Assembly: GCF_000685235.1 (NCBI RefSeq) | Contig: NZ_ARYH01000001.1 | Location: 186,001 to 250,000, forward strand | From: Hyphomonas adhaerens MHS-3 | GTDB lineage: Bacteria > Pseudomonadota > Alphaproteobacteria > Caulobacterales > Hyphomonadaceae | Direction of reading: 5' to 3' | Length of the DNA: 64,000 nt | Part shown: positions 10,835 to 28,575 of the stretch, piece by piece | How the letters are laid out: the number at the start of each line of letters is the position of its first letter | How positions within the stretch are numbered: position 1 is the first letter of the stretch | Notes under the pieces: generated by a model | Seen by the model: the letters and a program-made list of their open reading frames with translations, nothing else | What the model was told of the DNA's origin: nothing | Databases searched by the model: none | Made by a program: the position numbers and the translations under genes

Positions 10835-12161
10835 TTTTCTCTTTCACCTTGCGAACAGAAGCAGCAGCAGGCGGCCCCCCAACACCGACCAACGCCATAG
10901 GCTCAGCATCGGCCACGGCAATCTCGTCCATGCTCACGCCATAATATTCGCGAGTATCGAGGAAATATCGTTTGAGCTGGTCTGCTTGCGGATGAATGAC
11001 AAAAGCCGGAACGGCCGTGATGTTCATTGCCGTAGATATCGCAGTACACTTCCCCGTCTCCGGGTCTGGATATCCGTCGGAGTATTTCTGAAGCGCGTCA
11101 TAGACCGCTGGACAGGTGAAACCGTTGGCGACCTCAAGAGCACCCTGCTCATTGTGGAAGTTGTGCCAATAAGCGTACCGGGTGTCGAAATACCCCGCCA
11201 GATCGCCGCTCGCAGTGCCATCCCCATTCAATGTCAGGTGAACACGCGCGCCTTTAATAACATATTCCGCCGGGCGCCCCGTCCATCCGAATTTCAGGCG
11301 CAGGTCAAATGGCTCTGTAATGAGTTCGCCGTCGACAATCCACCCCTGCACTTTATTGTGCCACAACGTGTTGTCAGTCACCGTCATGCTGCCAAATGGA
11401 ACGCCGTCCTTTTCACTGTTGTATGGCGTTGGATCCTGGCTGGAATAGATTCCGACCTCAACGGATTCATCATTTGTGCGGTCATCCACCCCACGGATTT
11501 CCATCAGGGTCGTGACTTCCCCGTCCCGGTACGCACCAATGTGGTAGTCTTCCATCGCCCCGCCGGCGAACTCAGCGTCGCGCCGGAAACTGTCGATACA
11601 CCCCAGAACACGGTACAATTCATTATCGATCCCGCCTTCGCCGGTCGGGCTGACAAAGTCAGACGTTCCGCATGAGGCCGGGTCATCGCCTTGCGAATCC
11701 TGACCATCCAGATCGCGGCCAAAGGACACTGAACTCTGCACAGTCCGGTGCGGCGGGTCATCATAAGCATCGGGGATATTGCAGATCGGAGTCCCGTTGT
11801 GCTCGATCATGCGCTTGGCAGACAGGGCATACCCCATCTTGTAGTAAGTGCTGCGGTTTTCCGGCTGAAGAAGGTATTTTTGCTTCGCTTCCGGAAGGTT
11901 CATGATCGCAACATCCCGAAGCGCCATGGCATAGCCATCCGGACAGTCTTCAGGCGTTTCGTGAACTGCGTACCAAAAATACGTGAAGGCCAGACCGATG
12001 GTTTCCGATCCATCCGCCTCGACAATGGTTCCATCACTGCTGGTGAATTCTGCTGCTTCAGTCTGGATGTCCTGGCCGGCCCCGTTCTCTGCAGAGCAGG
12101 CGGCGCTCATCAACATGACTCCAATAGCGGCCAGCGAGACAATCGTCGTTCTTTTACGCAA
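10821..12161 (-). CDS. Predicted lipoprotein of unknown function in redox operon
   Basis: I do not recognise this 446-residue protein. The start is TTG at 12161, preceded by GGGAGG. It gives a clean lipoprotein signal, with the cysteine in MLMSAAC and SAENG after it, and places the gene 4 bases after the HiPIP stop. A longer ATG frame would run across the whole HiPIP gene and is rejected. The mature part is acidic and rich in Trp/Tyr, with several cysteines (EDCPDGY, PICNIP, PASCGTSD, LGCID, FTCPA, GKCTA) that may form disulphides. It contains no CXXCH. A jelly-roll-like beta structure or substrate-binding role is only a guess. It overlaps the start of the DUF1592 gene. Confidence 0.75.
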   Translation of the reverse strand: MRKRTTIVSLAAIGVMLMSAACSAENGAGQDIQTEAAEFTSSDGTIVEADGSETIGLAFTYFWYAVHETPEDCPDGYAMALRDVAIMNLPEAKQKYLLQPENRSTYYKMGYALSAKRMIEHNGTPICNIPDAYDDPPHRTVQSSVSFGRDLDGQDSQGDDPASCGTSDFVSPTGEGGIDNELYRVLGCIDSFRRDAEFAGGAMEDYHIGAYRDGEVTTLMEIRGVDDRTNDESVEVGIYSSQDPTPYNSEKDGVPFGSMTVTDNTLWHNKVQGWIVDGELITEPFDLRLKFGWTGRPAEYVIKGARVHLTLNGDGTASGDLAGYFDTRYAYWHNFHNEQGALEVANGFTCPAVYDALQKYSDGYPDPETGKCTAISTAMNITAVPAFVIHPQADQLKRYFLDTREYYGVSMDEIAVADAEPMALVGVGGPPAAASVRKVKEKNDQE

Positions 12162-12165
12162 GATT

Positions 12166-12543
12166 TCAGCCCTCCCTGCTGTTTGGTGCGAAGTTCTGAA
12201 AGCTTGCCGTCTGAGCCGACCAGGACGTGCAATATCCAGCCGGGTTAGCCGGCTGCCCATCAATTGCACAGCTGCCACAACCGGAATCTGCGGCACGGAA
12301 AAATGAGCAATTCGAACAGCTCTTGTCAGCGAAGGATGAGGCTTCCTGGTACTTGCGCCCCATTCTTGCGGCTTTCTGCCCCGCCGTTAGCTGCTTTTCG
12401 TCCAGACACTTTGCCCCCACGCCCGACCTGCTGCAGGACGCGACACCAGCTGCAACGGAGACCAGCGCCAGACGAACGAGCATTCGCCGTCTGCTCAGCC
12501 GACCCCCAATCACGTTCTCACCAATTTTATTTCTTGATTGCAC
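12166..12543 (-). CDS. High-potential iron-sulfur protein (HiPIP), Tat-exported
   Basis: A small periplasmic [4Fe-4S] electron carrier of 125 residues. The Tat signal is LSRRRMLVRLALVS. The cluster ligands fit the HiPIP spacing: CSNCSFF, GSC and GYCTSW near the C-terminus. The start is GTG at 12543, the only start that keeps the Arg pair, and a GGGGAGG lies about 13 bases upstream. First gene of the leftward operon, so it is probably the soluble acceptor or donor for the DUF1592 and c'-type cytochromes. HiPIPs normally carry electrons between cytochrome complexes and oxidases or reaction centres. A HiPIP in a catabolic cluster is less usual. Confidence 0.85.
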   Translation of the reverse strand: MQSRNKIGENVIGGRLSRRRMLVRLALVSVAAGVASCSRSGVGAKCLDEKQLTAGQKAARMGRKYQEASSFADKSCSNCSFFRAADSGCGSCAIDGQPANPAGYCTSWSAQTASFQNFAPNSREG

Positions 12544-12600
12544 GAGAATCTATAATCCTCCCCATTTTTAGGTTGGATTAGCGTGCCTCGCCGGATCCAG

Positions 12601-12625
12601 TCAATAACAATCTCACTATTATTGA
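12601..12625. promoter_or_regulatory. Operator-like palindrome, site 2 (HiPIP operon / TetR)
   Basis: TCAATAA-N11-TTATTGA is a perfect 7-bp inverted repeat in the 133-base gap between the divergent HiPIP operon and the TetR gene. It includes CTCACTA. Its first 18 bases match site 3 (reverse strand) at 16 of 18 positions: TCAATWACAAWCTCACTA. It is well placed for autorepression and for control of the operon. Confidence 0.6.
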
Positions 12626-12676
12626 GTTTTGTGCTTTGTGTTGCCTGAAACACCGCAGTGGCGCTACAAGGTGTAA

Positions 12677-13291
12677 ATGACCGAAAGGACCGCCCCCTTG
12701 CCTGAAAGCACCTATGAGCGCCTCACAGACGCCGCCGATCAGGCTTTTCTGAAAAATGGCGCGATTCCGATCGCGTTTGGTGACGTTTCAGAAGCCGCAG
12801 GGGTCAGCCGGGCGCTCGTCTACTCCCACTTCTCTTCTCCGGAAGAGCTTGTGAACGCGGTCCTCAGCCGACACGTCAAACTGATCGAAGCGCGCGCCGA
12901 CAAACATCCTCCGCCCCCGGAGGTATTTCAACAAGACCTGAAGCAAACCCTCGACATCTATTTTGACCACTTGTGCGATAACGGCCCGATTCTGCACCTC
13001 GCATCACAGGACGCATTTATGGCTGGAAAGTTCCGGCAGGATTACACGCGCCTCAGGAATGGCACGCTCGCGCGCCTCTCTCGCAAAGCCAGACACGAGC
13101 TGAAAGTGAGCCCCTCAGTCGCCCAGTCCCTTGTATTGCTAAGCGCTGGAGTGGCCGAGGAAGCCGCCAGACTGGCCAGAGCAAACGCCTTCACACACGA
13201 CACGGCCCGACAAACAATGTCGCGCATTGTTGATCTAATGCTGGATGGCCTCAAACTCGAGTCCGGAGCGTCACCCGCCCCGGCGGCTTGA
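12677..13291 (+). CDS. TetR/AcrR-family transcriptional regulator
   Basis: A 204-residue one-component repressor. The N-terminal helix-turn-helix is AFLKNGAIPIAFGDVSEAAGVSRALVYSHFSSPEELVNAVL. The rest is a helical ligand-binding domain whose inducer cannot be predicted. ATG at 12677 is preceded by AAGGTG. It is divergent from the redox operon, with a palindrome between the two, the classic arrangement for a local repressor. Its 3' end overlaps the 3' end of the opposing TetR gene by 21 bases. Confidence 0.88.
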   Translation: MTERTAPLPESTYERLTDAADQAFLKNGAIPIAFGDVSEAAGVSRALVYSHFSSPEELVNAVLSRHVKLIEARADKHPPPPEVFQQDLKQTLDIYFDHLCDNGPILHLASQDAFMAGKFRQDYTRLRNGTLARLSRKARHELKVSPSVAQSLVLLSAGVAEEAARLARANAFTHDTARQTMSRIVDLMLDGLKLESGASPAPAA

Positions 13292-14122
13292 AGCTGCGGT
13301 ACGCACAATCGCCGGCATAATCAGCTGTTGCGCCTCCACGATCGACAATTTTCCGAGCGAAACCAGATCCCCCGCCCGGAGCGTCAAATGCCCCAACAGC
13401 GCCACTTCTGCCTGGGCCCTATCTTCCGGCACACTTCGATCCTCAACCAGCTGCTGAATCTGACGCTGACGAAGCAGGCTCCTCCTGCTCCGGCGCCGCC
13501 GGGTGACTTCCTTCCGCACGTCATACAGAGACAAGAGATGCGTGGTGACCTCTCCGCGCTCAGCAGCGACCTGAAGGTACAGAAGGGTCGACAGGATCAC
13601 TTTTGATAGCCGGTCGGAGCCCCGGCGCACTGTGTCCGCCCTCTGGGCTTCAAATGCATCCAGCTCGCGCATGGTCAGCTCGACTAAAAGAGAGGTCCGG
13701 CTATCAAAGCAATTGTAGGCCTGTGCCTCGCTAATACCGATCTGTCGCGCAATTCCGCGCAGGGACACGCCATGCACCCCCTCCTCCAGGATCAGCTCTT
13801 TTGCCCGGTCCATGATTTGCTGTTTACGCTCATCCAGCGACAACCGCGTTTGCCGGCGCCTTGCGCCATGCCGCGCACCACCGATCTCGACCAACTCGTC
13901 GGAATCCGGGTCAGCCGCCGCGTCCACAGGGCGAGGGTGAGCCGCAGGATTGGACCAATACCCCTTGGGCGGCCGGTCGATATCCAGGCGGTCACAGATT
14001 TTTGCTAGGCCGTTCGGACTGACCTCAAACCGCTTTGCGAGCGTAACGATCGGCTCCTCCCAGACCAGCCGACGCAGCTCGCCTTTCGTTATTTTCGATC
14101 CCTTGGCCAAATCTATGCCCAC
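13271..14122 (-). CDS. TetR-family regulator with extra N-terminal HTH domain
   Basis: A 283-residue protein with two DNA-binding modules. Residues about 12-60 (ITKGELRRLVWEEPIVTLAK...VSPNGLAKICDRL..PPKGYW) form a small helix-turn-helix that also occurs alone in other bacterial proteins. About 35 linker residues later comes a normal TetR HTH (GVHGVSLRGIARQIGISEAQAYNCF) and a helical sensor domain. Start is GTG at 14122. It is divergent from the esterase operon across a 280-base gap with operator-like site 3. Which of the two TetR proteins binds the shared sites is not decidable from sequence. Confidence 0.82.
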   Translation of the reverse strand: MGIDLAKGSKITKGELRRLVWEEPIVTLAKRFEVSPNGLAKICDRLDIDRPPKGYWSNPAAHPRPVDAAADPDSDELVEIGGARHGARRRQTRLSLDERKQQIMDRAKELILEEGVHGVSLRGIARQIGISEAQAYNCFDSRTSLLVELTMRELDAFEAQRADTVRRGSDRLSKVILSTLLYLQVAAERGEVTTHLLSLYDVRKEVTRRRRSRRSLLRQRQIQQLVEDRSVPEDRAQAEVALLGHLTLRAGDLVSLGKLSIVEAQQLIMPAIVRTAASSRRGG

Positions 14123-17283: not shown

Positions 17284-17592
17284 TCACTCATCTTCCGGAA
17301 CGTAGATCATACGCCCGTCCGGCAGGCGATACGCGATACCGGCTTTCACCCCTTCACCCTCTCCGATCTCACCGCTGCTTTCATAGCGTGTCAGCTCTTC
17401 GCCTTGTTTGATCGTCATACGCATATCGGCTTCGCCCGGGTTCTCGATGACGATGACGTTTTCATTCCGGAAGGGATTTAGCGGATTCTGAACGAGCAGG
17501 ATCATCAAAATTCCGATGATCACGACAAACAAATCGACAAGATTGACGACAGAGAGGATGGGGTCGTCTTCGTCCTCTTCCAGGAACCTCAC
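17284..17592 (-). CDS. DUF2149 membrane protein (ExbD-like partner, HmuV-like)
   Basis: 102 residues with one membrane helix near the N-terminus (SVVNLVDLFVVIIGILMILLV) and a periplasmic tail, the ExbD/TolR layout. The family is DUF2149, which co-occurs with an ExbB-like channel and CobN-like proteins, for example in hmu-type operons of Bacteroidetes. An acidic patch (FLEEDEDDP) precedes the helix, with an Asp inside it that could take part in proton flow. It overlaps the preceding gene by 4 bases. Last gene of the receptor-CobN operon. The 197-base gap to the left (17087-17283) holds nothing I can identify. Confidence 0.82.
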   Translation of the reverse strand: MRFLEEDEDDPILSVVNLVDLFVVIIGILMILLVQNPLNPFRNENVIVIENPGEADMRMTIKQGEELTRYESSGEIGEGEGVKAGIAYRLPDGRMIYVPEDE

Positions 17593-18071
17593 GAAACCAT
17601 CTCCGCGCCAGTCTCGATCATCCGCAACTCTTCGAGCAGCCAGCGGCGGCGAATGTTGAGAACGAAGAAGGCCAGGCTTGCAGAGATCAGGGCCAGCGTC
17701 ACGCCGGAGAATGCAACGACCAGATTGCTCGCCATCTCAGCAGACTCTCCGGATGTCAGCGCCATCAATGCCGGCCCCATGGGGATAAGCGTCGCGACGA
17801 GCCCCAGCAAAGGCGCGACGCGGGACACCAGGCGCAGCGGTTCCAGCCGCCTCATAATCCAGAGCTCCAGATCATCGCTATCGGCCCTGGTCTCCCGGTA
17901 ATATTGCGTCAGCGCGCCCTGTTTCCGGCCGGAATAGCGTTGCGCGAGCTCCATCAGGAAACGTCCCAAGGTCAGGAGCGAATAAACAAGAGACACAAGA
18001 ATCGCTATCAGTGACGGTACGAGGAAAACGGCTGAGACTTCATAAAGTATCGTCTCGAAATCGAAAATCAT
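17589..18071 (-). CDS. MotA/TolQ/ExbB-type proton channel protein
   Basis: 160 residues with three predicted membrane helices. The conserved core VAPLLGLVATLIPMGPALMAL followed by SNLVVAFSGVTLALISASLAFFVL is the family signature. It probably uses the proton gradient to do mechanical work on a periplasmic or outer-membrane partner, together with the DUF2149 protein. Its ATG overlaps the CobN-like stop as TGATG, so the proteins are translationally coupled. Not the housekeeping ExbB, which is longer and paired with ExbD/TonB. Confidence 0.88.
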   Translation of the reverse strand: MIFDFETILYEVSAVFLVPSLIAILVSLVYSLLTLGRFLMELAQRYSGRKQGALTQYYRETRADSDDLELWIMRRLEPLRLVSRVAPLLGLVATLIPMGPALMALTSGESAEMASNLVVAFSGVTLALISASLAFFVLNIRRRWLLEELRMIETGAEMVS

Positions 18072-21000
18072 CAGTATTGCCCTTTATTTAAGGTCCATTG
18101 ACGCGACGTGCGAAGCTGGAGCAGCGCACCCGCAAGCATTACGAGAAGGAGCCCGGCGATCGAAGACAGGCGCAGCCAGTCCGGCCGGACGTCGCCGGGG
18201 GAAAGGACTTCATTCATGACCTGCCCCTGAATGGTCTGGGCCGCTGCAGCTGAAGTATCGGCCGCAGGTGCCCCCTGCCCGGTTCCAAAACCGAAACCGG
18301 CTGCCATATCCTCGATGTACTCGACGGTGGTCTGAGCGCCTGCGTCAGCACCGGCCTCTTCGGTAAGCTCCTGCCAGCGCTCGGTCAGCTCCCTGCGTGT
18401 CTGCTCGCTTGCATCCCAGTAACCCTTACGGATCGCTTCCGTCATACGCTCAATGATCTGAGCCTGCGCCGTTGGGTTCTGTTCTTCGAACCATTCATTG
18501 AGGCCAAGATCCCGGGCATCCATGACATAGGTATCATGCATCGCCTGCCACTGATCGGCGCGCACCATTGACTCGTCGGCCACCTGCCAACCGAAAAGGT
18601 TGTTTGTAACCCTCAGCATTTCGACGGTTCCGGCGTACCCCTCATCCATCATCGCCGAAATCCATTGCGGGTTCTGATAACGCGCGCGCAGCTCATCCGA
18701 TAGGAACTTGCTTGCCTGAACCATTTTCGGCCTGGCGCGCCGCAAATCCGAAATGTAGAGCGCCGGGCTTTCTCCGTTGACGGATTTCACGGCGGCGGAC
18801 AGTCCACCGAGGTATTCAAACGGGTGATCCGTCGACAAGACACCGTGCACATTGGAGGACCGTGCCAGGATCGCCGCATCAACACCCGTCAGCTGCTTCT
18901 CGAACAGGCCCAAGCTCGCAACGGACTGGCCCCAGTCAGAGGTCCCGTAAGCGAAGGATTGGCTTGCCAGATATGTCTGCGCGATGATCGCATCATCTTC
19001 CCAATTGGTCGAATCGAGTGCGGCATCCGGAACACCCGACCCATAATCACCGGGCGCATTCGAAAAGATTCTTATCGACGCCAGCCGGTCTGCAGTTCCG
19101 GCGTCCGTTCCTGCGGAGAGAAGCGCGTCTCTCACCCGGCGTGTACCGGCATAGACCGCATTCCCGGGCTCATCCTGTTTGGACAGCTCATCGATCGCCT
19201 CTGAATAAAGCCGCATAAGCCCATCAAACTGGTCCCGGTAGACACTGGTCGCCTGAATGACGACATCAACGCGGGGCCGCCCCAGTTCGGCCGCAGGAAT
19301 GATCTCGAGCTTTGTGACACGCCCGCCCCGGCCCCAGACCGGACGAACACCCAAAGCATGCATGATCTGCGCTTCGGTAATCCCCAGGGTCCGGATTGCA
19401 TCGGACGAGAAAAGCGAGAAAGCCAGCTTGTCGGGCGCCTGGCCATCATGGTCTGATTTGTAGGCGTCTATCAGCCCCGTGAACGCCTCCTCACCCGCCT
19501 TGTAGGCCGAGGGGGTCGGGATCTTGTCCGGCTCAAATGCAAACAGGTTACGGCCGCTCGACGCTTGCGGGTTGCGCACCGGGTCACCGCCCGGGCCAGA
19601 TTTCGTGAAGCCGCCATCCAATGCGTGCAACAGGGCTTCAAGCTCTTGCGGGTCAGCCAGGTTCTGGTCATAAGCTCGGGCGCGTTCGATCTGTTCACGC
19701 ATCGCTGCGTCGGCAATACCCGAAACGTCCTCACCCCCGCGCAGGAAGCGTTCGAGAAACTGGTACGGTTCACTTTCCGGCAGGTTCTCCGCCTCGGTTG
19801 CGAACATCTCGGTCTGGTCGATCCCAAGCAACGCGTAATATGGCTCACCCAATTGCTGCATCACCGTCATCAGTCTGTGCTCCGGAGAGGCGGCCAGACC
19901 GAACGTATGCAAGCCCAACGGCGTAGCTGTCTGAGCCAGTTCGTGCAGGTGATCGTGCAGGATCGGCAGGAAGGTCGCAAAGTCGCTTCGCACGTCTTCC
20001 TCTGTCCACAGCAGATCTTTTTGCAGGTTTGCCTCAATCACGACGTCGGCGAGGCGCGCATCTGTTTCATCACGCACAGCGCCTTCATCCAGCTGCTCTC
20101 GCTCGTGGATCAGGGCGTGAATGTCCCGCAGTTCATCATAGAATCCGGACGGCGCGAACGGCGGGGTCTGGTGACTGATCGTAACGGCCCGCCCCCGGCG
20201 AATCGCCTGAATTGCCTCTGCGACATTGTCCTGAATATAGGGATACACGACCGGAACGTTGCCGAGCGTCAGCATTGGATAGTCATAGGCCCACAAGCCC
20301 CGGTCCTTTCCGGGAGTCCACTCCTGGGTACCATGTGTCCCCAGATGGATGATCGCACTTGCGTCGAAGGCCTTCTGCACCATCAGGTAGGTCGCCAGAA
20401 ACAAATGTCCGGGCGGCACTTTGACATCATGATAGCTCTCGCCGACCTTATCGGCCCGTGGTGGCTGCGGCAGGAAAAGCAGCTTTCCAAACCTCACAGA
20501 CGGAATGACGAAAACCTTCTGCCCCTTGACCGTCCGCACCGCCCAATGGGATTCCGGCTCGCCCCACTTTTCAAAAACTGGCTGGGTCACTTCCTGTGGA
20601 AGCGTGTCGAGCCAGTCCTTATAATCCGACACGGGGAATGCCTGCGCCAATCCGTTCGCCAGCAAGTCATCCAGACGGTCGTGATGATAATACCCGCCCA
20701 GCATCGACTGACCTGCCTGCAGGATGTCATCCTCAGTCAGTTCGGGAACATCATATCCCGCCTCCCGCAACGCTGCGCCAATCTGCTCAACGCTTGCCGG
20801 AACATTCAGATTGGATGCCGACATGTTCCGCTCGCCCTGGGGCGTATTCCAGAAGAACAGCGCGAGCTTCCGGTCCACCTGATCGGAATGGCGCAACCGT
20901 GCAATACTTTTCGCCTTGCCAATCAGCAGATCGATCTGTTCGGGAATCGGGACCGGTTCTCCATTCTCAACTCCGGAGACCACGATCGGGTCCCCCATCC

Positions 21001-21949
21001 CCCAGGATTCCGGCGTCGCCATCAGGACCGCCGTCATGGCAGGTTCCACGCCCTGCGCCGCCTTGCGCCATTCCGCCGGCGTCATGGAGCGATTGCCCAG
21101 CAGTAAGATGGCCGGCACGTCCAGCTCTGCGAGTTCGGCCTTGCGCTGCTCGCCATTCTGCATGTGCGTATAGCTTGCAAGCAGATCGACATCAGCCGGA
21201 CCGAGCATTTCCGGGATACCCGTCTCCCCCATACTGTCGAACCAGAACAGGATCGGCATGACGCCAGCCCACTCTGCCTGATGAACGATCTTGTCCAGGA
21301 CAGCCGTCTGAACGCCGGAGATGTAGGTCGAGGAAATAATGACCGCCAGACGGGGCGCATCCGCTGGCCACCTGTCCCGCCCCCACGCTTCATAAGAGCT
21401 GACATCCGTAAAAAAATCGGGGGCATCCGGATGATAGATGGCACTTTCGGGCATGGGGACCGGCGCCGGGATATGGCTCGTGTCACGCCCCGAATTCCAG
21501 GCCGCGACATAGGTCAGGAAATTCCGGAAGTTCCGTTCACCACCCGCCTCATAATAGGCACTCAACGTCTCGAAGGCGGCGGGGTCCAGATTACCCGAGC
21601 GCGCTGGCCGGCCGCCTGATCCCACGGACATCCAGGGAACGCCGGCCGCGTTGAGCTGCCCCATAACGTCTTCAATCAACTGAGCGGCACGTCCACGCAG
21701 TGGCGCGTCTATGACGACCAGGTCGTATTCAGCCCAGTTCCCGGGTCCACCCTGCTCAAGATAATTGTGCGTGACCGTGACGTCGGCCTCTTTTCCCCAG
21801 CCCGCAATCCTCACGAGCTTGGACGGGAGCACAAAATCGCTGGCGACAATATGAATGCGGGCATCCCGCTCTGGCCGTTCATCGGCTGCTGCGCTGCCAA
21901 GGGCGCACGCGACAGCAATGGTCACCACCGCCAGGATCGTTCGGAACAT
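18071..21949 (-). CDS. Exported, membrane-anchored CobN/HmuS-like chelatase subunit
   Basis: 1292 residues of the CobN/BchH large chelatase family. In the cytoplasm CobN inserts cobalt into a corrin with the ATPase CobST, and HmuS homologues are linked to metal removal from haem. The core motif HLGTHGTQEWTPGK is at about residue 540. This copy starts with a signal peptide (FRTILAVVTIAVACALG...ADERP) and ends with a membrane helix (SIAGLLLVMLAGALLQL) plus a short basic tail, so it is periplasmic and anchored. ATG at 21949 has a GGAG site; ATG at 21961 is the alternative. No CobS/CobT is nearby. Gene order with a receptor, ExbB-like and DUF2149 genes matches hmuRS-UV operons. Confidence 0.88.
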   Translation of the reverse strand: MFRTILAVVTIAVACALGSAAADERPERDARIHIVASDFVLPSKLVRIAGWGKEADVTVTHNYLEQGGPGNWAEYDLVVIDAPLRGRAAQLIEDVMGQLNAAGVPWMSVGSGGRPARSGNLDPAAFETLSAYYEAGGERNFRNFLTYVAAWNSGRDTSHIPAPVPMPESAIYHPDAPDFFTDVSSYEAWGRDRWPADAPRLAVIISSTYISGVQTAVLDKIVHQAEWAGVMPILFWFDSMGETGIPEMLGPADVDLLASYTHMQNGEQRKAELAELDVPAILLLGNRSMTPAEWRKAAQGVEPAMTAVLMATPESWGMGDPIVVSGVENGEPVPIPEQIDLLIGKAKSIARLRHSDQVDRKLALFFWNTPQGERNMSASNLNVPASVEQIGAALREAGYDVPELTEDDILQAGQSMLGGYYHHDRLDDLLANGLAQAFPVSDYKDWLDTLPQEVTQPVFEKWGEPESHWAVRTVKGQKVFVIPSVRFGKLLFLPQPPRADKVGESYHDVKVPPGHLFLATYLMVQKAFDASAIIHLGTHGTQEWTPGKDRGLWAYDYPMLTLGNVPVVYPYIQDNVAEAIQAIRRGRAVTISHQTPPFAPSGFYDELRDIHALIHEREQLDEGAVRDETDARLADVVIEANLQKDLLWTEEDVRSDFATFLPILHDHLHELAQTATPLGLHTFGLAASPEHRLMTVMQQLGEPYYALLGIDQTEMFATEAENLPESEPYQFLERFLRGGEDVSGIADAAMREQIERARAYDQNLADPQELEALLHALDGGFTKSGPGGDPVRNPQASSGRNLFAFEPDKIPTPSAYKAGEEAFTGLIDAYKSDHDGQAPDKLAFSLFSSDAIRTLGITEAQIMHALGVRPVWGRGGRVTKLEIIPAAELGRPRVDVVIQATSVYRDQFDGLMRLYSEAIDELSKQDEPGNAVYAGTRRVRDALLSAGTDAGTADRLASIRIFSNAPGDYGSGVPDAALDSTNWEDDAIIAQTYLASQSFAYGTSDWGQSVASLGLFEKQLTGVDAAILARSSNVHGVLSTDHPFEYLGGLSAAVKSVNGESPALYISDLRRARPKMVQASKFLSDELRARYQNPQWISAMMDEGYAGTVEMLRVTNNLFGWQVADESMVRADQWQAMHDTYVMDARDLGLNEWFEEQNPTAQAQIIERMTEAIRKGYWDASEQTRRELTERWQELTEEAGADAGAQTTVEYIEDMAAGFGFGTGQGAPAADTSAAAAQTIQGQVMNEVLSPGDVRPDWLRLSSIAGLLLVMLAGALLQLRTSRQWTLNKGQY

Positions 21950-21963
21950 ATCCCGCTCCATCC

Positions 21964-23913
21964 TCAGAATGCGTAGGAAAGCGACAGGCGATAGACACGG
22001 CCGGGTTCGGCAAACGTGTAGAGGTCAGACCTGTCTGCCAGGCGTTCGTCTGTCAGATTGTCGATCCCGGCATTCAGGCGCACACGGGATCTCAGAGGCC
22101 ACACAGCATCAAGGTGCAGGAGCGTGTAGTCGGGGATAGTGACGCCCGGGGAATCCAGTTGGTCGCCGGTATATTCAACGCGCAGGCGAACCTCCGCCCC
22201 TTCCCTTGGAGACCATGACACGGCGGCATTCGCCTGATGCTCAGGACGTTCCGCAATCTGCTCCCCTGTCGCCTTATCTTCTGTGTCGAGATATGTGTAG
22301 TTGGCATTGATCCCGAACCCGGCAGGCAGGTCCATCTGCCCGGACAATTCCAGCCCGTCGATCTCCGCCTCTTCCAGATTGGTATAGTAGCGGACCTCCG
22401 AGCCCCTGATGCCACAGTCGGACACACACTGGCTCTGAATCAGATTCTCCAACTCGTTGTGGAACACCCCGGCATGCACAGTCCAGGTGTCGGCAATATA
22501 GTCTACGCTTGCCTCGAAGGTCTTCGTCGTTTCAGGTTTCAGATCCGGATTGCCATAGACCCAGAAACGGCCGCCAGCTGCGAGCACCCCGAAGTCCTCA
22601 GACAGATTGGTCAGGCTGGGTGACTTGAAGCCTTCGCCGTAGCCTCCTTTTACAACAATCCGGTCCGTCGGCTGGAACACAGCATAGAGGCGCGGACTGG
22701 CTTCCCAGCCATATGCGTCATGGTGATCACCACGCAGTCCAGCGACCAGTTTGAACGTATCAGTGACTTCGATTTCGTCCTGGACGAAGACTGCCCCCTG
22801 TTCCGCTTCCGAAGTTCCATCCGGGGACGCGACATCATCCTCCAGCTTCTCACGGCGAATTTCACCGCCAAATGTAACGGAGTGGGACTCCGCCAGCTTG
22901 AAGGCGGTCAGTCCGCTGAGCACTGTGTCTTCCAACCCCTGGTCCCGGGTCGGGGTTTGACCATTCGTCCGGAAGTTCTCCCGGCTTGCGGAACTCTGAT
23001 ACAGGTCCACCTGCGTGCGTCCCCACGACCAGTTGCCTTTGTGCCCCAGCACGAATTGCTCGCGCTCACCTTCATCGCGATCCTCATAATCTACCGGGGA
23101 TCGACCGGACGAGCGCGTATCGCGCCAGCGTTCATCGTCGCTTCGGGTGTAGATGAAATCGATGCGTTGCTGGTCATCCGGTGTCCAGACAAGGTTGAAC
23201 CGTCCAGTGGACGTTTTCCGCCCTTCGATGTCCGATATGGCCGGATCATCGCGATTGGGCCGGTCATTCCGCTCCATCACATCGCCTACGATGCTCGCCC
23301 CAAGCTTGCCTTCGACGAGCGGAACCGAAAGGAAGAGACTTCCATTCACACTTTCACCACCATCACCCGATTCCGGAGAGCTGCCGCCGAGGGACAGCTC
23401 GCCCATGAATTCTTCTGCTGGAGATTTGGTGATGATGTTGACGACGCCGCCAAGCGCATCTGACCCATAAAGCGACGACATGGGCCCGCGCACAACTTCG
23501 ACCTGCTCAATTGCCGCCGTAGGCAGCCAGCCAAGCTCCAGGTCGGAGTGCGCAATCACGCCATTGGTGGCGCTCACCCGGCGACCATCGAGGAGGTAAA
23601 GCGTGTACTCTTCCGGCATCCCGCGGAGACTGATCCCCCTTCTGGTCATGCCGATGCCGGTAACCTGCACACCGGGCTCACCGGCCAGGGCGTCAGTCAA
23701 ATCGGTCGAGCCGCGCAATTCCAGCTCTGCATTATCTACCACCGATACGCTCGCCGGTGCGGTTAGAAGAGCCTGCTCGCTAGCGGTTGCGGTAACAACC
23801 ACCGTGTCCAGTTCCCGCTCAAGGTCGTCGGCAAATGCCGGTGCTGCTGCGCTGAGCGCACCAAGGACCACCGACCCCGACAACCGACGGAACGAGAGAA
23901 TTTGCTGAGTCAT
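21964..23913 (-). CDS. TonB-dependent receptor (BtuB/HmuR-like), probable metal-complex uptake
   Basis: 649 residues from ATG at 23913. A longer frame to 24003 would put a Zur-like box inside the coding region and displace the signal peptide (LSGSVVLGALSAAAPAFA). The TonB box is DTVVVTATASE, the plug contains GVQVTGIGMTRRGISLRGMP and VEVVRGPMSSLYGSDALGGVVNIITK, and the barrel ends VYRLSLSYAF. It is much shorter than the receptor at 3575 and in the size range for haem, cobalamin or metallophore receptors. Two bases short of overlapping the CobN-like unit, so one operon. Its promoter region carries two Zur-like boxes, which points to zinc or a zinc complex (inference). Confidence 0.9.
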   Translation of the reverse strand: MTQQILSFRRLSGSVVLGALSAAAPAFADDLERELDTVVVTATASEQALLTAPASVSVVDNAELELRGSTDLTDALAGEPGVQVTGIGMTRRGISLRGMPEEYTLYLLDGRRVSATNGVIAHSDLELGWLPTAAIEQVEVVRGPMSSLYGSDALGGVVNIITKSPAEEFMGELSLGGSSPESGDGGESVNGSLFLSVPLVEGKLGASIVGDVMERNDRPNRDDPAISDIEGRKTSTGRFNLVWTPDDQQRIDFIYTRSDDERWRDTRSSGRSPVDYEDRDEGEREQFVLGHKGNWSWGRTQVDLYQSSASRENFRTNGQTPTRDQGLEDTVLSGLTAFKLAESHSVTFGGEIRREKLEDDVASPDGTSEAEQGAVFVQDEIEVTDTFKLVAGLRGDHHDAYGWEASPRLYAVFQPTDRIVVKGGYGEGFKSPSLTNLSEDFGVLAAGGRFWVYGNPDLKPETTKTFEASVDYIADTWTVHAGVFHNELENLIQSQCVSDCGIRGSEVRYYTNLEEAEIDGLELSGQMDLPAGFGINANYTYLDTEDKATGEQIAERPEHQANAAVSWSPREGAEVRLRVEYTGDQLDSPGVTIPDYTLLHLDAVWPLRSRVRLNAGIDNLTDERLADRSDLYTFAEPGRVYRLSLSYAF

Positions 23914-23932
23914 AGTATTTCCGATTTGATAG

Positions 23933-23949
23933 GTTATTTCATTACATTT
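23933..23949. promoter_or_regulatory. Zur-like box B (receptor operon)
   Basis: GTTATTTCATTACATTT lies 20 bases upstream of the receptor ATG. Its complement matches box A beside the zur gene at 13 of 17 positions. The position fits repression of the receptor-CobN operon by zinc-loaded Zur (inference). Confidence 0.55.
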
Positions 23950-24152
23950 TGAGGTCGTGCGAAACGGTTCTGCACATGAATTCTTGTTCAATCCGTTTTG
24001 CATGACCGTCCCGGACCACGCTGCCGTCCCGCCGACGGGTCACCGCTGACGAAGAGCTGCTGTTTCCCGCGAAATACGTACTTCAACAAACCCCCGCTCC
24101 TCCAGGCGACCAACACTCGTGGATGCCTCTTAGGACGCTGAACGACCGAGTC

Positions 24153-24171
24153 AATGTTATATTATACTGTT
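24153..24171. promoter_or_regulatory. Possible second Zur-like box C
   Basis: AATGTTATATTATACTGTT has the AATGTNATA left half seen in boxes A and B and an AT-rich core with partial dyad symmetry. It is 240 bases upstream of the receptor start, so it could serve a distal promoter or be chance. Confidence 0.35.
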
Positions 24172-24282
24172 ACTGTTTCTGGTGTATTTCTGCACATATT
24201 TTGCTCAACGAGGGGATACGCACTCAAAGACTCGGTGGCGCTGCCAAACACGAGCGCAGAACAGGATCTGAAAAAAGACCAG

Positions 24283-24307: not shown

Positions 24308-25003
24308 CTATGCAGAGGCAACCCAGCCACACCAGGTGAAAGCTCTGTAGAATTGCTCGACATTCGAGAAGCCCGCAGACTTCAGGATTTGTTCGTCCTG
24401 TTCTGGGGTCAGGAGCTCGACACTCCGGGATACGGCGTCGCGTGCCTGGCCTGCCATTTCAGGATCAACGCCAGACGCGACCGCGAACGCTTCATATCGG
24501 GAAAGCCATTTGTCTCGTACGTCAGGTGCCTGAGGAAAACTGGAATGGGCTGCGACGAACGGTGCGCCGGGCTTGAGGCGCTTGTGGATTTCCTTGATCG
24601 TTCTCAAGCGCTCCTGCCGGTCGAGAAAATGCAAAGTCAGCAGACATACCGCCCCGTCGAAAACCTCCTCTGGCGCTGCATCTATGTACCCTTCGATGAA
24701 GTCCACACGCGCAGCGGCGTCGCCTAGAGTGTCCCTGGCGAGCTCGAGCATTGGAAGCGCCGGGTCGACACCAACAAATGTCCAATCAGGTTGGCTTTCC
24801 GCCATCGCACGAAGCTCCAGACCTCCGCCCGCCCCAAGCACCAGAATTCGGCCATCATCCGGGACCCGCTCGGCCAGAAGGATCGTCACCATTCTATGCA
24901 GGTCAGCAAAACCAGGCGTGAAGCGCGGCGGACCGGATTGATAGTTCGAGATCGCCGCGGGATCCTTGAAGGATTTCAGGAATGGGTTTTCATCGGCTTG
25001 CAT
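24308..25003 (-). CDS. Class I SAM-dependent methyltransferase
   Basis: 231 residues with the SAM-binding motif I VLGAGGGLELRAM (about residue 55), motif II acidic end FVGVDPALPMLELAR, and a downstream motif VCLLTLHFLDRQERL. The substrate is unknown. It is the last gene of the leftward MerC-GTPase-DUF1826-methyltransferase operon, 33 bases after DUF1826, so a role in the zinc-limitation response is likely. It could make or modify a metallophore or act on a protein, but nothing in the sequence decides this. Confidence 0.82.
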   Translation of the reverse strand: MQADENPFLKSFKDPAAISNYQSGPPRFTPGFADLHRMVTILLAERVPDDGRILVLGAGGGLELRAMAESQPDWTFVGVDPALPMLELARDTLGDAAARVDFIEGYIDAAPEEVFDGAVCLLTLHFLDRQERLRTIKEIHKRLKPGAPFVAAHSSFPQAPDVRDKWLSRYEAFAVASGVDPEMAGQARDAVSRSVELLTPEQDEQILKSAGFSNVEQFYRAFTWCGWVASA

Positions 25004-25036: not shown

Positions 25037-25648
25037 TCAACATATTCCAGGGCGTTCAATATCGAACACCATCACGAAACGGGCGCTTCCGGTGCCCTCG
25101 ATTGGCGGCGAGCGGTGAAAGACATGTCCTGCCTTCCCGCAGCGCTTCCCCAGAAACATACCCACTTCAAACGTGGACATTTCCTGGATCGCCGGCTCGC
25201 CATTCCCCTGTTGCTCGTCGAACCATTGGGTTCCGCGGCCGAGATAAGTCGTGATCAGACGAATATCCGTCTTGTCCTTGTGGAACTTTCGACAGGCGTC
25301 GTCGGTGACATATTCCAGACGTAAAGTGTACTCCGCCGCATGACCGGAACTGGCACAAAGAATGGCCCGTATGTCCATCATGATGCGCTCCACGACCAGG
25401 GGAGACCAATTCCGCCCCGCAAGGAACGCCTCAGCCGTTGTTAAAATACCGGCTTCGTCGCCATCGACCCGGAAATCAACAAATCCGGAATAATCCAGAT
25501 CGCGAAACGCATCCCTTGTCTCAGAACCGACTCTTCGCTCCCAAAGAGCCAGTTCCACCGCTTCACGGAAACCCAATTCGATGAGCGAACCAAAACTATC
25601 GCAGGCGCCAACAGCCCGGATCTGCGACATGACCGACGACGCAGCCAT
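25037..25648 (-). CDS. DUF1826 family protein
   Basis: 203 residues of DUF1826, a family often found next to Zur-regulated COG0523 GTPases. Recognisable blocks are LRLEYVTDDACRKFHKDKTDIRLITTYLG, GTQW and the HRSPP motif with a following MVFDIE. The FHxD and HRSPP patterns resemble the metal-binding facial triads of cupin-like oxygenases, so an iron- or zinc-dependent enzyme is possible (inference). Start is ATG at 25648, which forms TAATG with the stop of the GTPase gene and has GGAGAAGG in front; an ATG 15 bases upstream is the alternative. Confidence 0.83.
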   Translation of the reverse strand: MAASSVMSQIRAVGACDSFGSLIELGFREAVELALWERRVGSETRDAFRDLDYSGFVDFRVDGDEAGILTTAEAFLAGRNWSPLVVERIMMDIRAILCASSGHAAEYTLRLEYVTDDACRKFHKDKTDIRLITTYLGRGTQWFDEQQGNGEPAIQEMSTFEVGMFLGKRCGKAGHVFHRSPPIEGTGSARFVMVFDIERPGIC

Positions 25649-26853
25649 TATTGCCTTCTCCATTTCGGAAACGGGTCACTCAAATCTTCACGCGCGGTGA
25701 TTGTCCCGCTGCGGTCCAGATGGGCGTCGGTCAGGCATGCATCCAACCGGGCGGTAATCGACACAGGATCCATGTCGATACCGATGAACACAATTTCCTG
25801 CCGGCGATCACCATAGACCGGATCCCAGACGGAAGAGAGATAGTCCTCAAGACCTGAACGATCCGGCCATTGTTCTTGTGGGACGCCCGACCACCAGGTC
25901 CCTACCCCGCTATGCCGGACCAAAGCGCCAGCCTGGCTGACTTCGCCAAGCCAATCCGGCCGGGTGGCCAGCCAGAAGAAGCCCTTTGCCCGGACGACGT
26001 TCGGCCAGGGCTCATTGAAAAACTCAAACAGTTTTTCCGGATCGAAAGGCTGTCGCCCGCGATAGACGAAGCTTTCGATGCCATACTCTACCGTTTCAGG
26101 AACGTGGTCCTCAAAACCGTACAGTTCCTTCGCCCACAGCGGATGATCATGCGCCTTTTCAAAATCAAATCGTCCGGTGCCCATAACCTTGTCGAGCGGA
26201 ACATTTCCAAATGCAGACTCCACGATATCGGCATCGGGATTGAGGGATCGTACCAGCTTCCTCACCGTGTCGAGGTCATCCGGCGAGATGATATCTGTTT
26301 TGTTCAGAATAATGACGTCAGCAAACTCGATCTGGTCGACCAGAAGCTGGACCAGCTGGCGGTCGTCGTCATCGCCGAGGCTCTCGCCACGATCCACAAG
26401 AAAGTCCGAACTGCTGTAGTCTTTCAAAAGATGCGCAGCGTCTACAACGGTCACCATCGTGTCGATCTTCGCAACGTCCCCGAGAGAAAAGCCTCGCTCA
26501 TCCCGGAAGTCAAAGGTCGCCGCCACCGGCAGTGGTTCGGAAATCCCGGTGGACTCGATCAGCAGATAATCGAAGCGTCCTTCCGCAGCGAGACGCGTGA
26601 CCTCTTTCAGAAGATCGTCTCTCAAAGTGCAGCAGATACAACCATTGCTCATCTCAACGAGCGCTTCATCCGTACGGGAAAGGTTAGCTCCTCCATCGCG
26701 CACAAGCGCGGCGTCGATGTTTACTTCGCTCATATCGTTTACGATGACCGCGACCCGCCGCCCCTCGCGATTGGCAAGCACATGATTTAAAAGCGTCGTC
26801 TTACCGGCGCCGAGAAAACCGGAAAGAACTGTTACCGGAAGTGTCTGGGACAC
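25648..26853 (-). CDS. COG0523 (CobW/ZigA-type) G3E GTPase, zinc metallochaperone
   Basis: 401 residues. GTP-binding Walker A is [14 protein letters not shown], the metal motif is CICC (in [12 protein letters not shown]), the base-recognition motif is NKTD, and the CobW C-terminal domain follows, with the family's typical zinc-paralog features. GTG at 26853 is the start because AGGAGG lies 6 bases upstream; the longer frame has no such site. Members of this subgroup deliver zinc to client enzymes under zinc starvation. The context (Zur-like regulator, DUF1826, DUF2796, MerC-like) makes this the likely role here. Confidence 0.9.
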
Positions 26854-26909
26854 TTGCACCCTCCTGCTTGAGATATCGTCGTAGAAAACGCTTCGCCCGC
26901 CTCTGGGGC

Positions 26910-27305
26910 TTAGAAGTCGCGTCTGGACCCGCCATGCCTGTGACGAACCCATCGCCATATGTGCGCCACCGCAAGCATCAGGGCCCCGGTCACAGTGAGT
27001 GGTGTTTCCAGTTCGTGCAGCGCTTCAACGAACGCCGCGGCAAACAGCAAGCTCAAACCGGCAACAGCCAACCCGACAAAAACTTTCCAATCTGGTGCCG
27101 ATAATCGCCTGACAATGGCAAACCCCGACAGGGGCAATGCCAAGGCGACAAATAGCTTGTGGACCCACTCAGCTTCAGACCACGCCCCGGCCAGGGGAAG
27201 AAAAGCTGCAAAGAGCGGCAAGGCGAGGCAGTGCACAACGCACAGCCCAGATAGCGTTATCGCGGAGAAATCTATGACCGCTGCCCGGGAAGACCGAACC
27301 GCCAT
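26910..27305 (-). CDS. MerC-like membrane protein
   Basis: 131 residues with four predicted membrane helices of the MerC mercury-transporter family. The metal motif CVVHC is in helix 1 ([15 protein letters not shown]). ATG at 27305 has GGGGGAG 6 bases upstream. No other mer gene is near, and MerC-like proteins recur in Zur-type loci, so a role in zinc movement rather than mercury resistance is likely (inference). First gene of the leftward operon, facing the zur gene across a 101-base promoter region. Confidence 0.83.
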
Positions 27306-27376
27306 CAGGCGCTCCCCCACTGCTCTACTGCGGGCAAAAATCGTTGCGGAGCATTCATTACATTACCTCGACTTGC

Positions 27377-27393
27377 GTTATGTTATTACATTC
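27377..27393. promoter_or_regulatory. Zur-like box A (zur / MerC divergent promoter)
   Basis: GTTATGTTATTACATTC contains the dyad ATGT-N4-ACAT. It lies between the divergent MerC operon and the zur-like gene, 14 bases before the latter's ATG, and its complement resembles box B. A position for co-repression and autorepression. Confidence 0.6.
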
Positions 27394-27406
27394 TGATATA
27401 TGTCCC

Positions 27407-27913
27407 ATGAGCGCTTTACAAGAGGCTGTTTCAACCATGATCGAAAATCGGCAGGACGCCCCTTCCTCCTCTTCGACGGAAGCCACGATTCTTGCTGCGG
27501 AACGGCGTGCGGAACAGGAAGGCGTGACCTTCACCTCAATTCGCCGATACGTGTATGCCATTCTGCTCGAAGCAGACGAACCGCTGGGCGCCTACGATAT
27601 TGCCGGTCGTCTTGATGGAATCGGATGCACGAAACCGACCACCGCTTATCGCGCCCTGGAATGGCTTGAGGGTCTGGGGCTGATCCGGAAGATCAGATCC
27701 GTCTCGAAATATGTCGCGTTAAAATCCGGCCCTCAGGACACACCTCTTGCATTTGTCATATGTCAGGAATGCGGGACGACGGAGCAGATTACGCTCGGCC
27801 CAGAAAGCCATGAGTTGCTGTCTGTCTTCGAAGCAAACGGGTTTCAGACCGTCAATCCGACAATCGAAGTTTCCGGACGCTGCATAGAACACCATCGGCT
27901 TACGGATGAATAA
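27407..27913 (+). CDS. zur: Fur-family regulator, probably Zur
   Basis: 168 residues. A winged helix (FTSIRRYVYAILLEADEPLGAYDIAGRL...KPTTAYRALEWLEGLGLIRKI) is followed by the dimer/metal domain with a Cys pair (ICQECG) and a late GRCIEHH. The helix sequence with TKPTTAYRAL is closer to Zur than to Fur proper. ATG at 27407 was chosen, since the longer frame starts at a TTG and crosses Zur-like box A. An ATG at 27437 is possible. All its neighbours on both sides are families known from zinc regulons. Likely represses them when zinc is bound. Confidence 0.8.
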   Translation: MSALQEAVSTMIENRQDAPSSSSTEATILAAERRAEQEGVTFTSIRRYVYAILLEADEPLGAYDIAGRLDGIGCTKPTTAYRALEWLEGLGLIRKIRSVSKYVALKSGPQDTPLAFVICQECGTTEQITLGPESHELLSVFEANGFQTVNPTIEVSGRCIEHHRLTDE

Positions 27914-28002: not shown

Positions 28003-28575
28003 ATGAAGTCATTTAATCTTATCGGAACGTGCATTCTGAGTACTGCGAGCATTCTCCTGCCCGCATCTGCCAGCGCGCAGTCTCTCGATGCGCACGTCCA
28101 TGGCGAAGCCAATATGGCAATTGTCATTGATGGAAAGCACCTATCAGCATCCCTGATGAGTGCGATGTACAATATCACGGGCTTCGAACATGCACCCGAA
28201 ACAGAAGAACAGCGGGAAGTCCTGCAAACGGCTAAATCTCTTCTCGAAGATGGCACACAGCTCTTCCAGTTTAATTCTGCAGCAGAATGCGTTCTGACGT
28301 CCTCCCACCATAACTTGTCATCAACAGAAGGCCGTCACGATACGGATGAAGACAAGCCGGAAACGGATGGCGAACATCATCACAGTCATCGGGATCTGGA
28401 AGCAGACTACGAATTCACCTGCAAAAAGCCCTCAAAGCTCTCATCTGTCAGAGTGGGCCTCTTCGATCACTTCAAGAACCTTCAGAAAGTGAATGTCGTA
28501 ACGCTTGCAGGTGGCCAGCAATCCGCCGCCGAGCTTACGCCGAAGCGGGAGACGCTGTCGCTGTCCGGTTCATGA
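28003..28575 (+). CDS. Exported DUF2796 (ZrgA-like) zinc-binding protein
   Basis: 190 residues with a signal peptide (ILLPASASAQ). The mature start AHVHGEANMAIVIDGKHLSASL and the later GFEHAP are the DUF2796/ZrgA signature. In the middle there is a His/Asp-rich loop (GRHDTDEDKPETDGEHHHSH) typical of zinc scavengers. ZrgA in Vibrio is a periplasmic part of a zinc uptake system. Here no ABC partners are adjacent. It is likely on the zur transcript and coupled to the DUF3299 gene. Confidence 0.87.
   Translation: MKSFNLIGTCILSTASILLPASASAQSLDAHVHGEANMAIVIDGKHLSASLMSAMYNITGFEHAPETEEQREVLQTAKSLLEDGTQLFQFNSAAECVLTSSHHNLSSTEGRHDTDEDKPETDGEHHHSHRDLEADYEFTCKKPSKLSSVRVGLFDHFKNLQKVNVVTLAGGQQSAAELTPKRETLSLSGS

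What the first reader, a model, noticed from the sequence alone, without database searches (positions are those of the whole stretch)
17284..24003. Zur-linked TonB receptor + exported CobN-like chelatase + ExbB-like/DUF2149 motor module
Seen: four overlapping or nearly overlapping genes in the order receptor, 1292-residue CobN/HmuS-like protein, MotA/TolQ/ExbB-like protein, DUF2149. Known: this gene order resembles Bacteroidetes hmuR-S-(T)-U-V operons, where HmuS is linked to removing metal from haem. Here the operon is next to zinc-regulon families and has Zur-like boxes, not haem or B12 signals. Inference: a periplasmic metal-releasing chelatase, driven by proton motive force instead of CobST ATPase, that frees zinc (or another metal) from a complex brought in by the receptor. 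That would be a new way to obtain zinc.
Basis: partly seen in the sequence, partly recalled or inferred. Interest (0 to 1): 0.8.

Follow-up and report, generated by a model that had tools for sequence, protein, structure and literature searches.

The report
Zinc-starvation operon with HmuS-like chelatase
A four-gene bacterial operon apparently switched on by zinc starvation encodes an outer-membrane receptor, an exported relative of metal-inserting enzymes and a proton-motor-like pair; its key residues match the heme-iron remover HmuS, which suggests that these bacteria may pull zinc out of porphyrins.

Summary
The operon is real and ordered as described: receptor, exported CobN-like protein, MotA/TolQ/ExbB-like protein, DUF2149. 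It is not new as an operon. It matches Pseudomonas aeruginosa PA1922-PA1925 family for family; that operon is published as Zur-bound and zinc-starvation induced, function unknown.

Added here: (1) the Zur link is widespread. Published Zur consensuses lie (at most 5 mismatches) upstream of 64 of 81 operons (window plus 80 relatives) against 27 of 896 other genes, in Alpha-, Beta- and Gammaproteobacteria. (2) The same chassis occurs in other metal contexts: heme, B12 riboswitches, a nickel (hyp) cluster. (3) The active site follows the context: 73 of 73 Zur-box rows carry H266/H543/H1046/E1049, counterparts of HmuS His254/His538/His1209/Glu1212; 0 of 9 riboswitch rows do.

Best explanation: a Zur-controlled, periplasmic, HmuS-like dechelatase releasing zinc from an imported zinc porphyrin, probably aided by the ExbB/DUF2149 pair. 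Regulation and topology are well supported; substrate, direction and proton drive are inferred. HmuS membership fails (no Met-rich insertion, no Met79), so it is a variant.

The parts
21964..23913 (-). TonB-dependent receptor, likely 649 aa (in-frame upstream ATG at 24003 also possible)
   Evidence: Pfam Plug and barrel; best NCBIfam matches CirA-like, below cut-offs; start chosen from Zur box and signal-peptide-like start
18071..21961 (-). CobN-like exported, membrane-anchored class I chelatase, 1296 aa (1292 from the ATG at 21949)
   Evidence: PF02514 949 bits; NF004644 1694 bits; nearest solved structure by sequence is HmuS 9d26, 430 bits; Foldseek best 9d26 E 1.6e-59, next CobN 7c6o 6.7e-59
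17589..18071 (-). MotA/TolQ/ExbB-family protein, 160 aa
   Evidence: PF01618 26.8 bits; invariant T94 and PxLGLxxT stretch in a 14-row alignment
17284..17592 (-). DUF2149 protein: one membrane helix with conserved Asp20, small predicted beta domain
   Evidence: PF09919 91.6 bits; found in 107 of 110 loci, Asp20 in 107 of 108 rows; weak profile match to ExbD helix, probability 53
23928..23945 (.). Zur-like box 1 (coding strand GTAATGAAATAACCTATC)
   Evidence: counterparts in two same-genus genomes
24156..24173 (.). Zur-like box 2
   Evidence: counterparts at 227-228 bp spacing in L180 and L181, 228 bp here
27377..27394 (.). Zur-like box between merC/zigA and zur
21164..21166 (-). codon of His266 of the CobN-like protein (HmuS His254, heme ligand)
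   Evidence: aligned by phmmer and MAFFT
20333..20335 (-). codon of His543 (HmuS His538, essential for heme turnover)
   Evidence: HxGTHG motif
18824..18826 (-). codon of His1046 (HmuS His1209, second axial ligand)
   Evidence: DHxxE motif
24308..25003 (-). class I methyltransferase upstream (a methyltransferase, PA1921, also flanks the P. aeruginosa operon)
   Evidence: PA1921; orthology to PA1921 not tested
25037..25663 (-). DUF1826 protein
25648..26958 (-). ZigA-type COG0523 zinc metallochaperone GTPase
   Evidence: NF038288 605.5 bits, cut-off 600
26910..27320 (-). MerC-family membrane protein
27407..27913 (+). Zur-like Fur-family repressor (start after the Zur box)
   Evidence: FUR 25.2 bits, cut-off 23.1; Zur NF008646 46 bits, below its cut-off of 167; start
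28003..28575 (+). ZrgA zinc uptake protein
   Evidence: PF10986 164 bits; NF047873 126 bits, below its cut-off of 185

Best explanation
Zinc starvation lifts Zur from two boxes upstream of the receptor (supported by comparison; shown experimentally only for the P. aeruginosa counterpart). The receptor then imports a metal-porphyrin complex, most likely a zinc porphyrin such as Zn-coproporphyrin or Zn-protoporphyrin (inferred). In the periplasm the membrane-anchored CobN-like protein binds it at a head/neck site through His266 and moves it to the central cleft. There His543 and His1046 (steered by Glu1049) face each other across the metal and protonate the ring, so zinc leaves; this is HmuS chemistry run on a redox-inert metal (inferred from residues). 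The ExbB-like/DUF2149 pair, with its conserved membrane Asp, probably supplies energy from the proton gradient to the chelatase rather than to the receptor (inferred). The freed zinc enters by other carriers; this genome has no ZnuA family member.
For: Zur control: the better of two published alphaproteobacterial consensuses (quoted in PMC2706843), at most 5 mismatches, upstream of 64 of 81 operons against 27 of 896 other genes; operons were given a window for each eligible gene up to CobN and the best kept, controls one window each. Matrix score of 14 or more in 70 of 81 against 21 of 356 control stretches. The operon has two Zur-like boxes in a same-genus genome where it sits among other genes (L180). 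All 71 Zur rows of the tree lie in one 81-row clade, support 100. Reaction: signature H266/H543/H1046/E1049 in 73 of 73 Zur-box rows and 2 of 2 HmuS rows; 0 of 9 rows from loci with a cobalamin riboswitch; the annotated CobN has Asp/Gln at the last two sites. Of 23 positions that mark the clade against ten sister rows, three are these HmuS ligand/catalytic residues. H538A abolishes heme turnover in HmuS (PMC12583661). Opposite HmuS Met79, by a gapless reading by eye, stands Pro in 81 of 84 rows; phmmer puts a gap there. One axial ligand would suit five-coordinate zinc porphyrins (inference). Motor serves the chelatase: CobN lies next to, or one gene from, ExbB/DUF2149 in 15 of 15 modules of an even phylum sample, two of them with no gene like the window's receptor in the stretch; all 10 plasmid records with a DUF2149 match carry a CobN match. 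Both families occur in Methanosarcina acetivorans, an archaeon without an outer membrane (known biology). Zn-coproporphyrin III occurs in nature (PMC6104308, title and abstract start).
Against: No biochemical test of any Zur-type member was seen in the passages read. The signature is one clade's shared trait, not many independent events: 5 independent pairs, sign test p 0.25. L163 has an HmuY-family gene but Asp at 1046; L032 (Azospirillum) has the full signature, no Zur box and a NikR gene nearby. L165 has a strong Zur box yet has lost the HxGTHG motif. Seven box-less relatives in the clade keep the signature. Fold comparison does not separate HmuS from CobN. DUF2149 has no solved match and no ExbD-like periplasmic fold. 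In P. aeruginosa, Zur bound the PA1922 promoter even without added metal, and the authors raise a cobalt link. Nothing was found that shows porphyrin specificity of the receptor.
Confidence: 0.42

Rival explanations
1. Cobalt route: the operon takes cobalt from corrinoids so that cobalt can replace zinc. This is the reading hinted at in P. aeruginosa papers.
For: CobN annotation; cobalt rescues zinc-starved P. aeruginosa and represses the Zur regulon (PMC13083405; PMC11481552); exported CobN modules with cobalamin riboswitches exist.
Against: Rows from riboswitch loci have Asp, not His, at 1046 (0 of 9 have the signature); no cobalamin riboswitch in window 9000-33000 or in 12 Zur-class loci; the regulator is Zur, which senses zinc.
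Confidence: 0.15
2. Zinc comes on a non-porphyrin zincophore (for example an opine or peptide), and the CobN-like protein acts as a large periplasmic zinc acceptor.
For: Receptor nearest to CirA-type siderophore receptors; P. aeruginosa imports pseudopaline-zinc by another receptor.
Against: Conservation of the porphyrin-handling residues of HmuS; no metallophore synthesis gene was recognised among the six flanking genes scanned.
Confidence: 0.2
3. Heme dechelation under zinc control: the enzyme strips iron from heme, for iron, for free porphyrin, or to clear heme in zinc-starved cells.
For: All four HmuS residues conserved; operon layout as in hmu.
Against: No Fur-box enrichment upstream (best matches 7-11 mismatches in 79 operons, controls from 4); no Met79 counterpart and no Met-rich insertion; Zur control makes little sense for iron.
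Confidence: 0.13
4. Forward chelatase: the protein loads zinc into a porphyrin in the periplasm, making a carrier.
For: CobN and ChlH insert metals (known biology); a methyltransferase flanks the operon here and in P. aeruginosa.
Against: Insertion by this family needs AAA+ ATPases in the cytosol (known biology); zinc insertion under zinc starvation would waste zinc; HmuS runs in the removal direction.
Confidence: 0.05

Closest known systems
P. aeruginosa PA1922-PA1925 (with PA1921), Zur regulon
   Same: TonB receptor, CobN-like, ExbB/D-family, DUF2149 (PMC9431628); Zur site and 45-147-fold induction in a znuA mutant (PMC4542158); Zur binds the PA1922 promoter (PMC8531726)
   Different: Function unassigned or tied to cobalt/B12 in the passages read; no residue-level link to HmuS in the papers listed as far as seen. 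A genome of the P. delhiensis genus group (L176) carries the operon with a Zur-like box (15.9); identity with PAO1 genes was not tested by sequence
Bacteroidota HmuS heme dechelatase (hmuYRSTUV)
   Same: Export, membrane anchor, His254/His538/His1209/Glu1212, ExbB and DUF2149 partners
   Different: No Met79 counterpart, no Met-rich insertion, no gene between CobN and ExbB, Zur boxes, 25-29% identity
Exported CobN modules in loci with cobalamin riboswitches (Trichlorobacter, Comamonadaceae, others)
   Same: Exported CobN with ExbB and DUF2149
   Different: Asp in place of His1046, no His266, cobalamin riboswitches, CbiZ or BzaF neighbours in two
Cytosolic cobaltochelatase CobN and Mg-chelatase BchH/ChlH
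   Same: Family and fold
   Different: No C-terminal membrane helix, AAA+/VWA neighbours for CobN, biosynthetic neighbours

Membership tests
HmuS heme dechelatase | HxG(T/A)HG motif with catalytic His538 | tested here: met
   His543 in HLGTHG
HmuS heme dechelatase | DHxxE motif with His1209 and Glu1212 | tested here: met
   STDHPFEYLGG; 73 of 73 Zur-box rows; HmuS itself reads LSLDHxxEFMGG
HmuS heme dechelatase | His254 heme ligand at the head/neck site | tested here: met
   His266; 81 of 84 clade rows
HmuS heme dechelatase | Met79 second heme ligand | tested here: not met
   Pro in 81 of 84 rows at the place read by eye; 3 of 84 rows have any Met within 12 columns; the alignment to HmuS is gapped there, so the exact partner is unsure
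HmuS heme dechelatase | Met-rich insertion in domain IV | tested here: not met
   between flanking aligned blocks the window protein has 24 residues, HmuS 9d26 188; region 700-770 is 67-77 residues in 73 Zur rows against 113 and 236 in two HmuS rows. A Met-count scan did not discriminate (max 6 of 40 in Zur rows; 6 and 5 in HmuS rows), and a CobN row is also long there (110)
HmuS heme dechelatase | NADH-dependent iron removal from heme | not testable with these tools
   needs purified protein
Cobaltochelatase CobN (B12 synthesis) | cob gene neighbours and CobS/CobT partners nearby | tested here: not met
   none among the six flanking genes scanned; a distant CobT-family gene exists at G000:C1:767756
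Cobaltochelatase CobN (B12 synthesis) | cytosolic, no membrane anchor | tested here: not met
   N-terminal hydrophobic stretch and C-terminal helix by hydropathy
Zur regulon | Zur box in the promoter | tested here: met
Zur regulon | zinc- and Zur-dependent expression | not testable with these tools
   published for the P. aeruginosa operon
ExbB/ExbD proton-channel pair | ExbB-family channel protein | tested here: met
   PF01618 26.8 bits, cut-off 22.9
ExbB/ExbD proton-channel pair | single-helix partner with a membrane Asp | tested here: met
   Asp20 in 107 of 108 DUF2149 rows; aligned with ExbD Asp at probability 53
ExbB/ExbD proton-channel pair | ExbD-like periplasmic domain | tested here: inconclusive
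   model of low confidence (pLDDT 65.5), helix plus five strands, no PDB match at E 0.001 or better

The most novel reading that the evidence does not exclude
One exported chelatase/ExbB/DUF2149 chassis has been adapted to several metals (iron from heme, cobalt and nickel complexes, zinc). The Zur-controlled branch, widespread in Proteobacteria including Pseudomonas, is a proton-gradient-assisted zinc-porphyrin dechelatase: bacteria use zinc porphyrins as a zinc source.
Probability: 0.35. Interest if true: 0.8.

Novelty: new variant of a known kind. Interest (0 to 1): 0.6.

Why it matters
PA1922-PA1925 has sat in the zinc-starvation response of P. aeruginosa for a decade with a name (CobN) that points to cobalt and B12. 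The residue pattern found here points instead to porphyrin demetallation as in HmuS, a precise and cheap test. If true, zinc porphyrins become a recognised bacterial zinc source, and removal of metal from tetrapyrroles in the periplasm becomes a general, metal-adaptable strategy rather than a Bacteroidota speciality.

Tried and rejected
Fur control: no enrichment upstream. B12 control: no cobalamin riboswitch in window 9000-33000, in 12 of the 69 Zur-box named loci or in box-less L079; the other named loci were not searched. Methyltransferase as a core part: a relative was called in 2 of 88 loci, and a 55% identical copy in the genome of L088 lies far from its CobN locus, so it is a neighbour, not a core part; a role in making methylated zinc porphyrins is idle speculation. 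Structure comparison to choose HmuS over CobN: not decisive. DUF2149 fold: no match. The site at G000:C1:2393821 could not be tied to a gene; the site at 2028358 lies just upstream of a TonB receptor that reminded me of ZnuD (recalled; Pfam gives only receptor domains). Threshold 14 was set after seeing scores, and its matrix came from the same promoters; with published consensuses is the independent count. Gene calls in loci are my own codon-usage heuristic; in the window locus itself it missed Zur and ZrgA, so neighbour counts are lower bounds. Named loci without a Zur site of 14 or more (11 of 80): L072, L074, L077, L078, L079, L083, L096, L099, L100, L101, L113; L083 and L100 are cut by contig ends, and L077, L096, L099 and L113 lack a called receptor directly before CobN. 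BchH-like labels were given by me from the tree around the one annotated row L122; among the CobN rows only L121 was seen annotated with cob neighbours. L165, fragments and near-duplicates were left out of the tree.
Full report
What is there. On the minus strand, window 24003-17284 holds a TonB-dependent receptor, a CobN-family protein, a MotA/TolQ/ExbB-family protein and a DUF2149 protein; the junctions are a 2-bp gap and overlaps of 1 and 4 bp. Upstream lie a methyltransferase, DUF1826, a ZigA-type COG0523 GTPase, MerC, a Zur-like regulator and ZrgA. The genome has one CobN-family gene, a distant CobT-family gene and no ZnuA-family gene. It is probably one of the Caulobacterales: L005, from the same order, has a CobN close to Phenylobacterium rows; this is inference.

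Conserved unit. Of 80 named relatives (the best of at least 555), 76 have a receptor-sized or receptor-like gene directly before CobN and 69 of these also an ExbB-like gene after it. DUF2149 was found in 107 of 110 loci of all kinds searched.

Zur control. A matrix trained on other loci gives the receptor promoter (23928-23945, 24156-24173) and the zur/merC promoter (27377-27394) as the best separate sites in the window. Genome-wide, sites with at most 2 mismatches to an alphaproteobacterial-style pattern are these two promoters and two other places; at up to 3 mismatches there are 13 hits against 8 for the reversed-pattern control, so single sites elsewhere carry little weight. Across relatives the signal is strong: with the consensuses quoted in PMC2706843 (passages read), 64 of 81 operons against 27 of 896 other genes have a site with at most 5 mismatches, and three of the ten control hits with at most 4 are COG0523 genes; operons had a window for each eligible gene up to CobN, controls one. 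By class of the 80 named loci, matrix sites of 14 or more occur in 29 of 29 Alpha, 32 of 35 Gamma, 6 of 13 Beta and 2 of 3 unassigned. Zinc-regulon neighbours were called in 88 loci as follows: COG0523 in 14 (the window and L035 among them), ZrgA in 3, Zur in 2, L31 genes directly upstream of the receptor in 3 and DksA-like genes beside the operon in 3 (one of each confirmed by Pfam). Same-genus genome G001 carries the operon in other surroundings, still with two boxes (L180); G070 has the window's surroundings (L181). No cobalamin riboswitch was found in window 9000-33000 or in 12 Zur-class loci, and no Fur-box enrichment.

Already in print. Pederick 2015 (PMC4542158, passages) lists PA1921 15-fold, PA1922 147-fold, PA1923 122-fold, PA1924 45-fold and PA1925 56-fold up in a znuA mutant, with a Zur site. 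Ducret 2021 (author name recalled; PMC8531726, passages) shows Zur binding the PA1922 promoter, even without added metal. Proteomics agrees (PMC11761036, PMC8557868; passages). PMC9431628 (passage) names PA1925 as DUF2149. The passages call the role unknown, speak of zinc import, or link it to cobalt or B12 (also PMC13083405 and PMC8456098, passages). Searches of the held library listed no paper whose listing or passages, as far as I saw them, tie Zur-controlled CobN to porphyrin; one search found 54 papers and listed 20. Subscription journals are mostly missing from the library.

One chassis, several metals. Exported CobN with ExbB and DUF2149 also occurs in the hmu operon of Bacteroides (L116) and with hmuY in Aureibacter (L118); inside a hydrogenase hyp cluster with a NicO match below cut-off in Runella (L117); with NikR about 7 kb away in Azospirillum (L032); and under cobalamin riboswitches in Trichlorobacter and a Comamonadaceae plasmid (L119, L120). 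In an even sample of 398 genomes of the window's phylum (Pseudomonadota, inferred), DUF2149 occurs in 16, the window's genome and G001 among them. Of 15 modules fetched from the other 14 genomes, 7 lie in loci with a cobalamin riboswitch, not always next to the module, and 1 has a Zur box before its receptor. So the Zur branch is common in absolute numbers but not the whole family.

Active site follows context. HmuS (PMC12583661; abstract, sections 13, 14, 20, part 1 of 21 and passages read) binds heme with Met79 and His254, and is proposed to demetallate between His538 and His1209, the latter held by Glu1212. In a MAFFT alignment of 147 proteins the window's counterparts are His266, His543, His1046 and Glu1049. 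Counts: Zur-box rows 73 of 73 HHHE; HmuS 2 of 2 HHHE; rows from riboswitch loci 0 of 9; BchH-like GHHD 14 of 15; the annotated CobN row GHDQ. Of the 73, 70 come from the score; L004, L005 and L176 were added because. Box-less rows inside the clade: L072, L074 and L078 have Met at 266, L079 has Asp/Gln at the last two sites, seven others keep HHHE. The 84 clade rows used leave out two fragments. An unguided list of 23 positions that mark the clade against its ten Asp-type sister rows contains 266, 1046 and 1049. The tree (FastTree, 121 rows, with long-branch warnings) puts all 71 Zur rows tested in one clade of 81, so this is one evolutionary coupling; independent-pair testing has no power.

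Mechanism. Shown: gene order, family membership, hydrophobic anchors, box enrichment, residue pattern. Inferred: the ligand is a porphyrin, because the second axial His is present in the heme rows and all but one Mg-porphyrin row and absent from the corrin-linked rows; the metal is zinc, because Zur controls the operon; the direction is removal, because export places the enzyme away from ATP and beside an importer, as in HmuS (periplasmic exposure was argued for P. gingivalis HmuS in PMC13227078, section 22). Replacement of Met79 by Pro would leave a single axial ligand at the head/neck site, as zinc porphyrins favour; the alignment is unsure there. The ExbB/DUF2149 pair goes with the chelatase more strictly than with the receptor, and DUF2149 has a membrane Asp in 107 of 108 rows, so proton coupling to the chelatase is plausible but unproven. 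The predicted DUF2149 domain is not recognisably ExbD.

Limits. The 80 loci are the best-scoring of at least 555 relatives, so they lean towards the window's clade. L163, L165 and L032 do not fit the simple rule. The fold search places the model with the whole superfamily and does not choose between HmuS and CobN.

Verdict. The operon and its zinc control are known from P. aeruginosa. The HmuS-like signature across a Zur-controlled clade is the new element, and it turns an open annotation into a direct biochemical test.

Noticed in passing
L165 (G345:C18:54000-72000), CobN-like 9919-13869: Strong Zur box (26.8) before a receptor/ExbB/CobN-like operon whose CobN-family protein (772.9 bits) has lost the HxGTHG catalytic motif.
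   Followed up: partly
L117 2680-10714 (Runella slithyformis plasmid): Receptor, 'urease accessory' (weak NicO) protein, ExbB, DUF2149, CobN inside a hypBFCDE hydrogenase-maturation cluster: a possible nickel version.
   Followed up: partly
L163 (G510:C54) 5201-14000: HmuY-family gene with receptor, ExbB, DUF2149 and CobN in a genome of the window's phylum, but with the Asp-type active site.
   Followed up: no
L158 4064-14095: Cobalamin riboswitch, receptor, ExbB, DUF2149, a gene joining Peripla_BP_2 and CbiZ domains, and CobN: a corrinoid version.
   Followed up: no
G000:C1:2028358 (L192 3905-5992): A Zur-like site just upstream of a second TonB receptor, ZnuD-like from memory.
   Followed up: partly
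window 25037-25663: DUF1826 gene between the methyltransferase and ZigA in the zinc cluster; function unknown; a DUF1826 relative also lies in L111.
   Followed up: no
G000:C1:767756-768574: CobT-family gene in a genome whose only CobN relative is the exported one.
   Followed up: no
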